Shown here: positions 16,552 to 21,045 of the stretch, one piece after another | Numbering within the stretch: position 1 is the stretch's first letter | Layout of the letters: each line of letters opens with the position of its first letter | NCBI GenBank assembly: GCA_026415695.1 | Contig: JAOAGP010000039.1 | Coordinates: 1-64,000, forward strand | Direction of reading: 5' to 3' | DNA from: Thermodesulfovibrionales bacterium | Lineage (GTDB): Bacteria > Nitrospirota > Thermodesulfovibrionia > Thermodesulfovibrionales > Dissulfurispiraceae | Length of the DNA: 64,000 bases | Translations under genes and position numbers: made by a program | Notes under the pieces: generated by a model | Databases searched by the model: none | What the model saw: the letters and a program-made list of their open reading frames with translations, nothing else | What the model was told of the DNA's origin: nothing

Positions 16552-16983
16552 ATGCTTCGTCTTTCTACAAAAGGGCAATATGGTGTAAGGGCGATGTTTG
16601 AGATTGCCCTCGGTTACCCTGACAGACCTGTAACCATAAAGGAGATCTCGGATAATCAGGATGTCTCGGAGTCTTATTTAGAGCAGATACTCAATAAACT
16701 CAGAAAGGCGGGTCTAATCACGAGCAAAAAGGGTCCTGGTGGTGGATACACCCTTACAATGCCACCAGATGAGATAAGCATTGCAGATATCTTGATACAA
16801 TTAGAGGGTCCCCTTGCCATAACATCATGTCTTGACCCATCAGAGGGGTGTTTGAGGGTAGATAAGTGTGTTAGCCATCTTTTATGGAAGGGATTAGGGC
16901 AACAGATTGAGAGATTTTTAAAGACGATTAAATTAAGCCATCTTATAAAGGGAGATATTGGGAAGGAAGATGAAATTTGTTGA
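16552..16983 (+). CDS. Rrf2-family transcriptional regulator, IscR-like
   Basis: 143-residue winged-helix regulator. The N-terminus MLRLSTKGQYGVRAMFEIA and the recognition region ISDNQDVSESYLEQILNKLR, then KKGPGGGYTL, are typical of IscR. Three cysteines, spaced C-x6-C-x5-C in CLDPSEGCLRVDKC, are placed to hold a [2Fe-2S] cluster, as in IscR. It heads a unit with tusA, a nifS-like gene and iscU, and an IscR type-1-like site lies over its promoter. Together these suggest it senses Fe-S status and represses the unit. Other Rrf2 types such as NsrR are less likely. Confidence 0.85.
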   Translation: MLRLSTKGQYGVRAMFEIALGYPDRPVTIKEISDNQDVSESYLEQILNKLRKAGLITSKKGPGGGYTLTMPPDEISIADILIQLEGPLAITSCLDPSEGCLRVDKCVSHLLWKGLGQQIERFLKTIKLSHLIKGDIGKEDEIC

Positions 16984-17218
16984 CAATGTAAAGGCAGATG
17001 TGACTGCAGATATAGTCTATATGATGTGTCCGATGCACCTATTGAAACTGGATGAGATGATGAAAAAGATTGAAAAAGGTCAGATACTTGAGATAATGAC
17101 TGATTATGATGGTGCACTTGAAGACATCCCTCAATGGTGTGAAAAGACAGGGAATGAATTTATTGGGATTCATGAGGATGAGGATTATTTTAAGTTTTAT
17201 GTAAGAAAACTTGTTTAA
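16970..17218 (+). CDS. TusA-family sulfur carrier protein
   Basis: 82-residue protein. TusA proteins carry persulfide sulfur on a conserved Cys in the first helix; here it is Cys20 in MMCPMHLLKLDEM, replacing the usual CPxP with CPMH. The remainder (IEKGQILEIMTDYDGALEDI and the C-terminal strand) fits the two-layer fold. The ATG at 16970 overlaps the regulator stop by 14 bases; an in-frame TTG four codons earlier is the alternative. Placement between regulator and NifS-like gene suggests it passes sulfur within this unit, which is interesting because the NifS-like protein looks impaired as a desulfurase. Confidence 0.82.
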   Translation: MKFVDNVKADVTADIVYMMCPMHLLKLDEMMKKIEKGQILEIMTDYDGALEDIPQWCEKTGNEFIGIHEDEDYFKFYVRKLV

Positions 17219-17233
17219 AGGAGATATTTTGAT

Positions 17234-18403
17234 ATGAGATGCTATCTTGACCATGTTGCAACTAATCCATTAGACCCTCAGGTGTTTGATGCAATGTTAC
17301 CCTATTTTAAGGAGGAGTTTGGTAACCCATTAAGCATATATGATTTAGGTATAAAGGCGAGAACTGCTATTGAAAACGCAAGGGAGCAGGTGGGCAAACT
17401 CATAAACTCAAAACCATCAAACATCATATTTACATCAAGTGGTGCTGAGGCAAACAACCTTGCCTTAAGAGGACTTGCGATGGCAAAACAATCAACTGGT
17501 AAGCATGTATTGGTCTCAAAGGTGGAGCATCACTCCATACTTAATTCTGCAAGGGTTTTAGAAAAGAGTGGTTTTGCAGTCACATATCTGCCAGTTGATA
17601 AATATGGGGTTGTTGACCCAGATGTTGTAAAATCATCTATTACTAAAGAGACCATCCTTGTATCAATCACACATGCAAGCAGTGAGATTGGAAGCATTGA
17701 ACCAATCAAGGAGATATCAAAGATTACTAAGCAGAAAAAGATACTCCTACATACCGATGCTGTGGCAACTTGTGGGAATATCCCAGTAGATGTAAATGAT
17801 TTGGATGTGGATGCATTGAGTATTGCTGCACATCAGTTTTACGGTCCGAAGGGGGCAGGTGCCCTTTATGTAAGAGAAGGGGTAAGGATTGTCCCCCTCA
17901 TTTATGGAGGCATACAAGAAGGTGGAAGAAGGGCGGGCACTGAAAATGTTCCTGCTATTGTAGGCATGGGTAAGGCTGCAGAGATAGCAATGCAAAGGAT
18001 GTCTGATAGAATAGCACACTGCCAAAGACTACGAGACAGGATAATAGAATCAATTCTTAAGATACCAAATGTATATCTCACGGGTCATCCTGAAAATAGG
18101 TTGCCTCATCATGCAAGTTTTGTAGTGGAGTTTATTGAGGGTGAAGCCATGTTGCTGATGCTTGCAATGAAGGGTATCTATGCAGCCAGTGGTTCGGCTT
18201 GCTCATCAAGGGCACTTAAATCTTCACCAGTTTTGCTTTCGTTAGGTGTGCAAACTGCCCTTGCACAGGGCTCAATAGTATTTACACTTGGACAGGGAAA
18301 CACCGATGCAGAGATTGATTATCTATTGGATGAGTTCCCAAAGGTTATTAGTCGCTTAAGAGAGATGTCACCTTTTGCAAAGGGGTGGCAACAAGGCTCT
18401 TAG
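17234..18403 (+). CDS. NifS/IscS-like protein lacking the PLP-binding lysine
   Basis: 389-residue member of the fold-type I cysteine desulfurase family. Most landmarks are present: the N-terminal CYLDHVATNPLDPQV, EHHSIL (PLP-stacking His), HTDAV (Asp175), the RRAGTENV block and the flexible-loop Cys323 in SGSACSSRA. However, the position of the Schiff-base Lys (Lys206 of E. coli IscS, in GHK-GPKG) is Gln201 (AAHQFYGPKG, codon CAG at 17834-17836). The equivalents of IscS Asn155 and Gln183 are Ser150 and Ala178. Desulfurase chemistry by the usual route is therefore unlikely. It may be a scaffold partner or work with sulfur from another donor. Archaeoglobus IscS likewise lacks the Lys. Confidence 0.88.
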   Translation: MRCYLDHVATNPLDPQVFDAMLPYFKEEFGNPLSIYDLGIKARTAIENAREQVGKLINSKPSNIIFTSSGAEANNLALRGLAMAKQSTGKHVLVSKVEHHSILNSARVLEKSGFAVTYLPVDKYGVVDPDVVKSSITKETILVSITHASSEIGSIEPIKEISKITKQKKILLHTDAVATCGNIPVDVNDLDVDALSIAAHQFYGPKGAGALYVREGVRIVPLIYGGIQEGGRRAGTENVPAIVGMGKAAEIAMQRMSDRIAHCQRLRDRIIESILKIPNVYLTGHPENRLPHHASFVVEFIEGEAMLLMLAMKGIYAASGSACSSRALKSSPVLLSLGVQTALAQGSIVFTLGQGNTDAEIDYLLDEFPKVISRLREMSPFAKGWQQGS

Positions 18404-18437
18404 AGTTGTTTATTTTTGAGAGTTAGAGGTGTATATC

Positions 18438-19490
18438 TTGGCACTCCAAAGCACAGACTATAAAGAAAGAAACTATCTTTCAGCTATTGAGGCAGCCAAA
18501 TATCTTAAAATATCAGTTTCGGCCCTTCATTCTCTTGTTGGTAATAAAATAATCAAGGTTAAACAGTCAGCAAGTGGACAAATGAGATTTAGTCTATCAG
18601 AATTAAAAAAGGTTACTCATGACATATCCCATCACATAGAAGAGAAAAAAGATTATAATCATGTAAATGTTTTTGAGATTAATGGGACAAATCACTGCCT
18701 GTATGTCAAGAATTCAATGTGTATGAATGACCTCCCTGACAATAGCATCCATCTGATGATAACCTCTCCTCCTTACTTCAATGCAAAGATGTACTGCAGT
18801 CAGCAAATAGATGGTGATCTTGGAAACATTCACGATATAGACGAATGGTTTGAAAAGATTGGTTATGTATGGAGAGAGGTTTATAGGGTTTTGCAACCTG
18901 GCAGAAAGGCTTTTATAAACATAATGAATCTCCCAATAAGGCTTAATGGCGGATTTAGGACATTAAATCTAACAGGCAAAACAATTGATTTATGTGAAAA
19001 GATAGGCTTTATATTTAAGCGTGATATAGTATGGCACAAAACAAATGCTGTGAGGGCACATTTTGGCACTTATCCTTATCCTGGTGGAATACTCATAAAC
19101 AATATGCATGAGTTTATCTTAGAGTTTGATAAACCAGAACAAAAGGGATTTAAGAAATACGGACATCTAACAAGGCAACAGAAGGAGCAATCTAAATTGG
19201 ATAAAGAGTTTTGGTTGTCTATCAAAAAAAGCGATGTCTGGATTATGAAACCTCAAGGTAGTGGAGACAGACGAGACCATGTTGCACCTTTCCCTTATGA
19301 ATTGCCGTATAGACTTATTAAGGCATTTAGTTATGTTGGTGAGAGAGTTTTAGACCCGTTTGTAGGGGCAGGGACTACCTTATTTGCAGCAATTGACCTC
19401 AAGCGAAACGGTGTTGGTTATGAGATAAATCCAGAGATTGCTTTAGAGACAGCTAAGAAGATTAAGTCATATCAATATAAGCTGTGGTAG
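18438..19490 (+). CDS. DNA methyltransferase (probable m4C, beta class) with N-terminal HTH domain
   Basis: Type II modification methylase of 350 residues. An N-terminal excisionase/MerR-like helix-turn-helix (about 10-60: YLSAIEAAKYLKISVSAL, then a QMRFSLSELKK wing) precedes the catalytic part. Motif IV TSPPYFNAKMY comes before the SAM motif LDPFVGAGTTLFAA near the C-terminus, which is the beta-class order; SPPY rather than DPPY favours N4-cytosine. TTG at 18438, 6 bases after AGAGGTG, is the likely start; GTG at 18429 lies inside that site. It overlaps the next gene by 7 bases. The HTH might set sequence specificity or autoregulate. Confidence 0.85.
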   Translation: MALQSTDYKERNYLSAIEAAKYLKISVSALHSLVGNKIIKVKQSASGQMRFSLSELKKVTHDISHHIEEKKDYNHVNVFEINGTNHCLYVKNSMCMNDLPDNSIHLMITSPPYFNAKMYCSQQIDGDLGNIHDIDEWFEKIGYVWREVYRVLQPGRKAFINIMNLPIRLNGGFRTLNLTGKTIDLCEKIGFIFKRDIVWHKTNAVRAHFGTYPYPGGILINNMHEFILEFDKPEQKGFKKYGHLTRQQKEQSKLDKEFWLSIKKSDVWIMKPQGSGDRRDHVAPFPYELPYRLIKAFSYVGERVLDPFVGAGTTLFAAIDLKRNGVGYEINPEIALETAKKIKSYQYKLW

Positions 19491-20650
19491 AAAATCTGAT
19501 GAAACCAGATGGCAAAACGATATATGCACAATCAAGTGATATTAAATCAAGGACATATCTTGAATACCGTAAAGATATGAAGAAAAAAGCTATTTCGGAA
19601 CTGGAAGTCCTGCCATGGCTTAGAAATAAACTAAAATCTAAATATGCGAGTGTTGTAGTTGAGAAATCTGGGGGTGATAGTTTTTTATGGTTCTTAAGAA
19701 AAGGTGGAATCTCAAGGGATGCTGATTTTAGGGCACGGATTGATGATAAGGAAATGGAGATTGAGTTTCAATATGCAGATACTGATATTAAAGATAATTA
19801 TGTATTTGACTTTAAAATCTCTAAGGTTGCAACAAAGATAAAAGGTAAGAATAGTCTTGAACCTAAAGATACAATTTTTCTATATCTATTTAAATCATCT
19901 CCCACAAAATACGCCTTTATTCCTGCAAAATGGATACTTGATAATGGCACAAAAGGAGTGGCTCCTGCTTGGGGTAATAGAGAGGTTTATAAAATCATAT
20001 GGAGTCAGCTTTCAAAAGCATCCATGATAGAAGAAGACAAATCATTGTCAGCTGTTTGGGAATTAATTGATATGAAACTATTCATCTTAGATTTTCAACA
20101 TGAGTTGATTGATATATTTAAAGAACAACTTTCTCATAAACTTCAAAAAGTTATAGATAAAAAACAGATTATTGAGATTATTCCACAGGATTTAAACAGT
20201 TTTTTTGAGGTGTGTTTTGTATTAGACAGTATAAATAAAATCCCTCAAAATGCTAATCGTTGGTTAATTTATCTTTTAAAGTATGTTAATGATGAAAACA
20301 CCCTTGAGGATATTTCTAAAATCATATATTGTATTGATTTTATCTATGCGAAAATTCCTCAACTAAAGAATAATGAAATTGAACAACTTATAAAAAACTT
20401 AAAGCTTTTGCTCAACAAAATAAGTAAGTTTTATCAACCTGATGGTTCTTATGTGTCGTCATCAAAAAAAAGCCCTTTAGAAAACACGAGATTTGCTCTG
20501 TTTTCAATAAATCTTTTGGAGGATTTGACACAAGATGCTATATACTACTATCAGGTCTCAGATTTAAAAAGTATAACTAAAATTTATGAAAATATCCCTG
20601 ATATAGGTAAAACCTATGATTTCATAAAAAGGGCAATAGAAAGTAAATAA
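19484..20650 (+). CDS. Putative restriction endonuclease paired with the upstream methylase
   Basis: 388-residue protein that I do not recognise by family. Its place, overlapping the methylase by 7 bases, is that of the cognate nuclease. A possible PD-(D/E)xK-like core lies at about residues 75-95: RDADFRARIDDKEMEIEFQY, with Asp, a short turn, then ExEFQ in place of the usual ExK. The C-terminal ~200 residues are helical and Lys/Ile/Asn-rich. It is markedly more A+T-rich than its neighbours: by hand count, 13 G/C in 20101-20160 against 25 in 17461-17520 within the nifS-like gene. That supports recent transfer. The start could instead be the ATG at 19499. Confidence 0.55.
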   Translation: MVENLMKPDGKTIYAQSSDIKSRTYLEYRKDMKKKAISELEVLPWLRNKLKSKYASVVVEKSGGDSFLWFLRKGGISRDADFRARIDDKEMEIEFQYADTDIKDNYVFDFKISKVATKIKGKNSLEPKDTIFLYLFKSSPTKYAFIPAKWILDNGTKGVAPAWGNREVYKIIWSQLSKASMIEEDKSLSAVWELIDMKLFILDFQHELIDIFKEQLSHKLQKVIDKKQIIEIIPQDLNSFFEVCFVLDSINKIPQNANRWLIYLLKYVNDENTLEDISKIIYCIDFIYAKIPQLKNNEIEQLIKNLKLLLNKISKFYQPDGSYVSSSKKSPLENTRFALFSINLLEDLTQDAIYYYQVSDLKSITKIYENIPDIGKTYDFIKRAIESK

Positions 20651-20667
20651 TTTCAATGGAGGAAGTC

Positions 20668-21045
20668 ATGTATTCAGCCAAAGTAATGGATCATTTCTCA
20701 AACCCAAGAAATGTTGGAGAGATACCTGATGCAGATGGTGTAGGGATGGAAGGCAATCCCACTTGTGGGGATGCAATGCAGATATTTATAAAAGTCAAAG
20801 ACGACATCATTACTGACATCAAGTTTAAGACATTTGGCTGTGGCGCTGCTATAGCTGTAAGCAGTATGGTCACAGAAATGGCAAAAGGCAAACACATTGA
20901 CGAGGCTTTAAAGATTACTAAAGAGGCAGTGGCAGCTGAGCTTGATGGGCTACCACCACAAAAGATGCATTGTTCAAATTTAGGTGCTGATGCACTAAGA
21001 AAGGCTATTGAGGATTATAGGAGTAAAAAGGCGGCAGGTGGTTAA
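20668..21045 (+). CDS. iscU: Fe-S cluster assembly scaffold IscU
   Basis: 125-residue scaffold on which [2Fe-2S] and [4Fe-4S] clusters are built before transfer. The three ligand cysteines are present in GNPTCGDAM (with the regulatory Asp), FGCGAAIAVSSM and KMHCSNLGADAL. The ATG at 20668 is chosen because the earlier ATG at 20656 overlaps the GGAGG ribosome binding site. It normally follows the desulfurase gene directly; here a restriction-modification pair lies between. No hscA, hscB or fdx follows. Confidence 0.95.
   Translation: MYSAKVMDHFSNPRNVGEIPDADGVGMEGNPTCGDAMQIFIKVKDDIITDIKFKTFGCGAAIAVSSMVTEMAKGKHIDEALKITKEAVAAELDGLPPQKMHCSNLGADALRKAIEDYRSKKAAGG

What the first reader, a model, noticed from the sequence alone, without database searches (positions are those of the whole stretch)
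17234..18403. NifS/IscS-like protein in an isc-type operon lacks the PLP Schiff-base lysine
Codon CAG at 17834-17836 gives Gln201 where every working cysteine desulfurase has the Lys of GHK-x-GPKG. Two other PLP contacts are also changed (IscS Asn155 to Ser150, Gln183 to Ala178), while the stacking His, Asp175, and the sulfur-carrying Cys323 stay. The gene is intact and sits between TusA and IscU under an IscR-like regulator, so it is not a decayed copy. The coordinated change of the PLP pocket suggests a different mechanism: a scaffold for IscU, a persulfide relay fed by sulfide or TusA, or another cofactor. Archaeoglobus IscS also lacks this Lys, so it may belong to a wider sulfide-based subgroup.
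Basis: partly seen in the sequence, partly recalled or inferred. Interest (0 to 1): 0.8.

Follow-up and report, generated by a model that had tools for sequence, protein, structure and literature searches.

The report
Lysine-less IscS beside a TusA gene
This bacterium's iron-sulfur cluster factory is built around an IscS protein that has lost the lysine holding its vitamin-B6 cofactor, and the same loss is shared by a large bacterial family that almost always sits next to a small sulfur-carrier gene, which suggests these bacteria feed ready-made sulfur into IscS instead of cutting it out of cysteine.

Summary
Gln201 (CAG, 17834-17836) replaces the PLP lysine, and Thr76, Asn155, Gln183 and Ser203 (E. 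coli numbering) are also lost; His99, Asp175, Thr236 and Cys323 remain. It is not a private mutation. Among 88 distinct orthologues from Nitrospirota, Thermodesulfobacteriaceae, Chloroflexota and Aminicenantes none has Lys there (Q 78, E 8, M 1, I 1), all 88 keep the Cys, and dN/dS is mostly 0.02-0.13. In a pocket-blind tree 77 bacterial lysine-less IscS form one moderately supported clade; Archaeoglobus IscS may or may not belong. A TusA gene lies within 1.3 kb of 98 of 108 lysine-less IscS but of 0 of 49 intact lysine-type IscS; some operons also hold dsrE2. In the window's genome this locus has the only IscU found, SufB/D was not found, dsrAB is present, and a separate canonical desulfurase exists. 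Best reading: a pseudo-desulfurase that docks IscU and receives sulfur on Cys323, probably from TusA. Cofactor loss and sulfur direction are inferred, not shown. The basic idea is known from Archaeoglobus; the breadth and TusA/DsrE2 linkage appear new, though one key paper could not be read.

The parts
16552..16983 (+). Rrf2/IscR-like regulator, first gene of the operon
   Evidence: PF02082 4.9e-39; below NCBIfam's IscR cut-off (134 of 207 bits); precedes tusA in the Nitrospirota loci where the flank was held
16970..17218 (+). TusA-like sulfur carrier with CPMH instead of CPxP; Cys20 is the expected sulfur-bearing residue
   Evidence: PF01206 5.9e-20; CP in 118 of 118 neighbouring TusA, CPMH in 77; D52, W56 and C57 at least 95% conserved
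17234..18403 (+). IscS* : lysine-less IscS/NifS homologue, 389 aa
   Evidence: AF2 model pLDDT 89.7, best PDB fold matches include 4hvk, 4r5f and 4eb5 (A. fulgidus IscS), TM 0.92-0.94
17834..17836 (+). codon CAG = Gln201 in place of the PLP Schiff-base lysine
   Evidence: Q/E/M/I but never K in 88 distinct orthologues
18200..18202 (+). codon TGC = Cys323 on the mobile loop (persulfide carrier or cluster ligand)
   Evidence: Cys in 132 of 132 distinct lysine-less sequences; loop 324-328 has pLDDT below 50
20656..21045 (+). IscU scaffold, 129 aa, with NPTCGD, FGCG and LPPQKMHCS motifs; the only NifU_N gene found in the genome
   Evidence: PF01592 1.3e-50; one match in G000
18429..20650 (+). insertion between iscS* and iscU: N4/N6 DNA methyltransferase (18429-19490) and an ORF without known family (19484-20650); probably a restriction-modification unit, not part of the Fe-S machinery
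   Evidence: PF01555 4.8e-40; PADLOC MTase_II; not between iscS* and iscU in the same-genus loci L011 and L012; GC down to 0.31 against 0.38-0.42 around it

Best explanation
IscS* is a former cysteine desulfurase that no longer makes sulfur from cysteine. It keeps the fold, the IscU-docking surface and the mobile Cys323 loop. It most likely accepts sulfane sulfur on Cys323 from the neighbouring TusA (TusA-Cys20-SSH to IscS*-Cys323-SSH) and presents it, or ligates the nascent cluster, on IscU. The sulfur would originate elsewhere: from DsrE2-type carriers where these are in the operon, from a separate canonical desulfurase, or from sulfide. Shown here: residue loss across a whole family, retention of Cys323 and of IscU-contact residues, purifying selection, TusA/DsrE2 linkage, and no second IscU or SufB/D found in the window's genome. 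Inferred: absence of bound PLP and of desulfurase activity, direction of sulfur flow, identity of the donor to TusA.
For: No Lys in 88 distinct orthologues, Cys323 88/88; 132 lysine-less sequences from at least four phyla with His99, Asp175 and Cys323 invariant and PLP contacts 71, 150 and 178 eroded; dN/dS mostly 0.02-0.13. IscU-contact positions (E309, G310, E311, L380, R381, S384, P385, E. coli numbering) invariant in the 77 lysine-less tree sequences and less so in lysine types. TusA within 1.3 kb: 98/108 lysine-less against 0/49 intact lysine type, upstream or downstream by lineage; TusA Cys 118/118; DsrE2 with one invariant Cys (16/16 aligned copies) beside iscU and tusA in about 18 distinct loci. 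In E. coli the TusA Cys19 sulfur lies within 4.5 A of IscS Cys328' (PMC2854127). In 17 of 60 relatives, the window's genome included (16 at least 90% complete, one in a single contig), IscS*-IscU is the only U-type scaffold found and no SufB/D was found. A. fulgidus IscS with Asp for Lys is reported to lack desulfurase activity and to lend a Cys ligand to the IscU cluster (PMC7585200).
Against: Gene neighbourhood does not give the direction of transfer; TusA could be an acceptor. TusA-site residues defined in E. coli (W45, E49, D52, R237) are not specially conserved in lysine-less IscS (window I, T, E, G), so TusA would have to dock differently. Ten of 108 lysine-less loci show no TusA within 1.3 kb. 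[quoted passage not shown] Invariant His99 and Asp175 suggest that the old cofactor pocket still has a use.
Confidence: 0.5

Rival explanations
1. Archaeoglobus-type scaffold: IscS* binds IscU and lends Cys323 as a ligand while free sulfide supplies the cluster sulfur; TusA is a side partner (for example for tRNA or sulfur trafficking).
For: Best fold matches include A. fulgidus IscS 4hvk, 4r5f and 4eb5; Af IscS reported inactive and a Cys donor to the cluster (PMC7585200; PMC9769115); dsrA in 140 of 154 Nitrospirota genomes with this family against 37 of 242 without (confounded by shared ancestry); H2S can replace the desulfurase in E. coli lacking IscS (PMC13015791).
Against: Does not explain why TusA neighbours nearly every lysine-less IscS and no intact lysine-type IscS in the sample, nor DsrE2 in the same operons.
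Confidence: 0.32
2. Cryptic PLP/PMP enzyme: cofactor is held without a Schiff base and does slow or different chemistry, or IscS* forms a mixed dimer with the canonical paralogue.
For: His99 and Asp175 132/132 and Thr236 130/132 retained; 4EB5 is drawn with PLP (PMC9769115); some members keep Thr76 and Asn155, and one (L223) has lost only the Lys among the contacts examined.
Against: In the window's branch Thr76, Asn155, Gln183 and Ser203 are gone together; no other lysine takes the place of Lys206; the catalytic base is missing.
Confidence: 0.1
3. Regulatory or decoy pseudoenzyme that titrates IscU or TusA away from the canonical desulfurase.
For: A canonical lysine-type paralogue exists in the genome (G000:C6).
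Against: IscS* is encoded with the only IscU found, while the paralogue has none beside it; Cys323 invariance is not needed for a decoy.
Confidence: 0.05
4. Sequencing or assembly artefact at codon 201.
For: None found.
Against: Same replacement in dozens of independently assembled genomes, encoded by CAG and CAA.
Confidence: 0.01

Closest known systems
Archaeoglobus fulgidus IscS (4EB5/4HVK; Asp199 at the Lys position)
   Same: No Schiff-base lysine, Gln183 replaced by Ala, Cys loop kept, IscU partner; among the best fold matches, 47-49% identity in the structural alignment
   Different: Asp instead of Gln, second His replaced by Asn, Thr76, Asn155 and Ser203 kept; linkage to tusA was not checked here; common origin unresolved
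Methanosarcina acetivorans IscS1
   Same: Reported to lack the PLP lysine beside an IscU (PMC7585200)
   Different: Archaeal, unassayed (inclusion bodies); its sequence was not compared here
IscS/NifS cysteine desulfurases (E. coli IscS, H. pylori NifS)
   Same: Fold (TM 0.86-0.93), persulfide Cys, operon with IscU and an Rrf2 regulator
   Different: They keep the Lys and the PLP contacts; 49 sampled intact lysine types have no TusA within 1.3 kb
rhd-tusA-dsrE2 sulfane-sulfur trafficking module of sulfur oxidisers
   Same: TusA with DsrE2, as in many Chloroflexota and some Desulfobacterota lysine-less operons
   Different: Described for Dsr or Hdr-like energy metabolism (PMC4175335), not for IscS/IscU
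MIS minimal system (MisS-MisU)
   Same: An IscS-IscU pair as the whole core machinery
   Different: Defined on desulfurase homologues; the defining paper (Garcia et al. 2022) is not in the library, so overlap with this family could not be checked

Membership tests
PLP-dependent cysteine desulfurase (IscS/NifS) | Schiff-base lysine in GHK | tested here: not met
   Gln201; no Lys in 88 distinct orthologues
PLP-dependent cysteine desulfurase (IscS/NifS) | PLP contacts Thr76, Asn155, Gln183, Ser203 | tested here: not met
   A71, S150, A178, A198; His104, Asp180 and Thr243 equivalents kept
PLP-dependent cysteine desulfurase (IscS/NifS) | active-site Cys on a mobile loop | tested here: met
   Cys323, 132/132
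PLP-dependent cysteine desulfurase (IscS/NifS) | class-V aminotransferase fold | tested here: met
   PF00266 8.1e-77; Foldseek
PLP-dependent cysteine desulfurase (IscS/NifS) | NCBIfam NifS (TIGR03402) score cut-off | tested here: not met
   486.7 bits against 530.75
PLP-dependent cysteine desulfurase (IscS/NifS) | desulfurase activity | not testable with these tools
   needs purified protein
Archaeoglobus-type lysine-less IscS | Lys replaced, Cys loop kept, paired with IscU | tested here: met
Archaeoglobus-type lysine-less IscS | same evolutionary origin of the loss | tested here: inconclusive
   free quick tree puts Af apart; AU test does not reject one clade, p 0.59
Archaeoglobus-type lysine-less IscS | IscS Cys as ligand of the IscU cluster | not testable with these tools
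   needs a structure of the complex
tusA-dsrE2 sulfane-sulfur module | tusA with dsrE2 adjacent | tested here: not met
   no dsrE2 found beside the window's operon; met in about 18 related loci of Chloroflexota and Desulfobacterota
MIS minimal system | definition of MisS/MisU by its authors | not tested
   defining paper not held; only second-hand mentions read

The most novel reading that the evidence does not exclude
A large bacterial branch of Fe-S assembly runs sulfur backwards through IscS: TusA (in some lineages charged by DsrE2) gives sulfane sulfur to the Cys of a PLP-free IscS, which passes it to IscU, so cluster building is uncoupled from cysteine and tied to inorganic sulfur metabolism.
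Probability: 0.42. Interest if true: 0.82.

Novelty: new variant of a known kind. Interest (0 to 1): 0.62.

Why it matters
IscS is the textbook source of cluster sulfur, by PLP chemistry on cysteine. A family from at least four phyla, many members carrying dsrAB, that keeps the IscU partner and the sulfur-carrying Cys but discards the cofactor lysine would mean that these anaerobes assemble clusters from inorganic or carrier-bound sulfur. It turns an isolated archaeal oddity into a testable pathway with a named donor (TusA) and natural intermediates, and warns that automatic annotation as 'cysteine desulfurase' is probably wrong for these genes.

Tried and rejected
Artefact or decay: rejected by orthologues and dN/dS. 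Replacement by another lysine: the only conserved lysine nearby is GPKG Lys206, which lysine-type enzymes also have. Loss of the stacking His in Chloroflexota: first thought so from the HQ/NQ motif, but that residue is the E. coli His205 equivalent; the stacking His (H104 equivalent) is invariant. Independent loss in Archaeoglobus: suggested by the quick tree, not upheld by the AU test. HQ-lacking relatives as true losses: doubtful for G020, whose IscU lies 290 bp from a contig start. Literature searches for a prior description of TusA-linked lysine-less IscS found none in the open-access library, which omits most subscription journals; Garcia et al. 2022, Yamanaka et al. 2013 and Pagnier et al. 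2014 could not be read. DsrE2 elsewhere in the window's genome was not searched (genome search exhausted).

Full report
Observation. The ORF 17234-18403 encodes an intact 389-residue class-V aminotransferase-fold protein. Codon 201 is CAG (17834-17836), giving AAHQFYGPKG where cysteine desulfurases have GHK. The NCBIfam NifS model scores it below its cut-off (486.7 of 530.75 bits).

Generality. Of 60 near relatives, the window's genome included, 51 hold an orthologue at E 1e-160 or better; the 30 fetched all have His-Gln. A scan of named genomes gave 80 more loci. Over 88 distinct orthologues from Nitrospirota, Thermodesulfobacteriaceae, Chloroflexota and Aminicenantes position 201 is Q 78, E 8, M 1, I 1, never K, while the Cys is present in all. 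Gln is encoded by CAG 65 times and CAA 13 times, and pairwise dN/dS among close pairs is mostly 0.02-0.13, at most 0.17, so the protein is maintained by selection. Phylum samples extended the set to Desulfobacterota with S, A, P and T at the lysine position. Taking all fetched sequences, 132 distinct lysine-less and 61 lysine-type proteins compare as follows: His99, Asp175 and Cys323 invariant in the lysine-less set, Thr236 130/132, but Thr76 kept in only 41, Asn155 in 20 and Gln183 in 1; lysine types keep Asn155 61/61 and Gln183 55/61. The lysine-less group here is defined by residue 201, so that column is not evidence in this comparison; the other columns are.

Evolution. A tree of 122 sequences with the pocket columns removed puts 77 bacterial lysine-less proteins in one clade (SH-aLRT 88, moderate), with six lysine-bearing but eroded proteins (Q183 and T243 equivalents lost) beside them (99, starred). 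Archaeoglobus IscS (sequence recalled and verified as identical to 4EB5) stands apart in this quick tree, but the test of a single lysine-less clade including it is not rejected (p 0.59). Whether there was one loss or two is therefore open.

Neighbourhood. Nitrospirota operons mostly read iscR-tusA-iscS*-iscU; Chloroflexota and Aminicenantes read iscS*-iscU-(dsrE2)-tusA. A TusA HMM finds a same-strand tusA within 1.3 kb of 98 of 108 lysine-less genes, 0 of 49 intact lysine-type genes and 4 of 6 eroded lysine-type genes (sequences are related, so the Fisher p of 4e-31 overstates independence). These TusA all have the sulfur Cys (118/118), in CPMH form in 77. A DrsE_2 protein (PF13686, 9.8e-50) sits beside iscU and tusA in about 18 distinct loci of Chloroflexota and Desulfobacterota, with one invariant Cys in 16 of 16 aligned copies. 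TusA with DsrE2 is a described sulfur-trafficking arrangement (PMC4175335), though Metallosphaera DsrE2B itself was inert in vitro.

Genome context. The window's genome (99.7% complete, 123 contigs) has one IscU found, no SufB/D found, dsrAB, this IscS* and one canonical desulfurase with the HK motif and no iscU beside it. In 17 of 60 relatives, the window's genome included, IscS*-IscU is the only U-type scaffold found and no SufB/D was found; 16 of these are at least 90% complete and one is a single contig. One relative, G030 (98% complete, draft), shows no canonical desulfurase: its only other strong Aminotran_5 hit resembles aspartate-glyoxylate aminotransferase. Across 396 Nitrospirota genomes dsrA accompanies the family in 140 of 154 cases against 37 of 242 without it; shared ancestry confounds this, and some of the 154 are eroded-lysine forms.

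Structure. The AF2 model is confident (pLDDT 89.7) apart from 224-232, the Cys loop (324-328) and the C-terminus; best PDB matches are A. fulgidus IscS 4hvk, 4r5f and 4eb5 along with human NFS1 complexes. Several positions in the E. coli IscU-contact segments are invariant in the lysine-less set, whereas the E. coli TusA-site residues are not specially conserved.

Mechanism. The data fit a protein that has given up cysteine desulfuration but still docks IscU and presents Cys323. TusA is the best candidate donor because of the near-exclusive linkage and because in the E. coli complex the two sulfurs already lie within 4.5 A (PMC2854127), so transfer in reverse is geometrically plausible. The main rival is the Archaeoglobus model in which Cys323 is a cluster ligand and sulfide the sulfur source (PMC7585200, PMC9769115); H2S can serve Fe-S assembly in E. 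coli lacking IscS (PMC13015791). The two can coexist. Cofactor absence, lack of activity and sulfur direction remain inferences. Invariant His99 and Asp175 are unexplained by either model.

Novelty. A lysine-less IscS is already known from Archaeoglobus and Methanosarcina IscS1. A family of this breadth, with the TusA/DsrE2 linkage and eroded intermediates, was not found in the open-access library searched, but most subscription papers, including the one defining the MIS system, could not be read.

Noticed in passing
window 18429-20650: A DNA methyltransferase and a 388-aa ORF without any Pfam, NCBIfam or PADLOC match are inserted between iscS* and iscU; low GC (down to 0.31); not there in same-genus loci L011 and L012. 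Probable restriction-modification unit with an unrecognised nuclease.
   Followed up: partly
window 16970-17218 and TusA genes of L001-L098: The operon's TusA has CPMH instead of CPxP, conserved in 77 of 118 TusA collected, with a second near-invariant Cys (C57) in DIPxWC.
   Followed up: partly
L247, L248, L255, L256, L257, L258: IscS with the lysine still present but the Gln183 and Thr243 equivalents lost, beside the lysine-less clade in the tree; possible intermediates of cofactor loss.
   Followed up: partly
P0001 His99, Asp175, Thr236 (window 17234-18403): The PLP-stacking His, the PLP-N1 Asp and the phosphate Thr stay (nearly) invariant in lysine-less proteins although other contacts are lost; use unknown.
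   Followed up: no
genome G030 (L261): 98% complete draft relative with IscS*-IscU in which no canonical cysteine desulfurase was found.
   Followed up: partly
L095 7215-7583 and 7598-7960; L165, L166, L184: Thermodesulfobacteriaceae-type loci carry two tandem iscU genes after iscS*.
   Followed up: no
PDB 9wep-9wfy: The closest solved homologues by sequence are a series of variants of one cysteine desulfurase, with pocket changes such as Thr to Ile and Lys to Leu; purpose not known to me.
   Followed up: no
L103 3451-4608 and 6001-7143: A canonical lysine-type iscS-iscU pair lies directly upstream of the lysine-less iscS-iscU pair in a Chloroflexi genome, a natural side-by-side comparison.
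   Followed up: no
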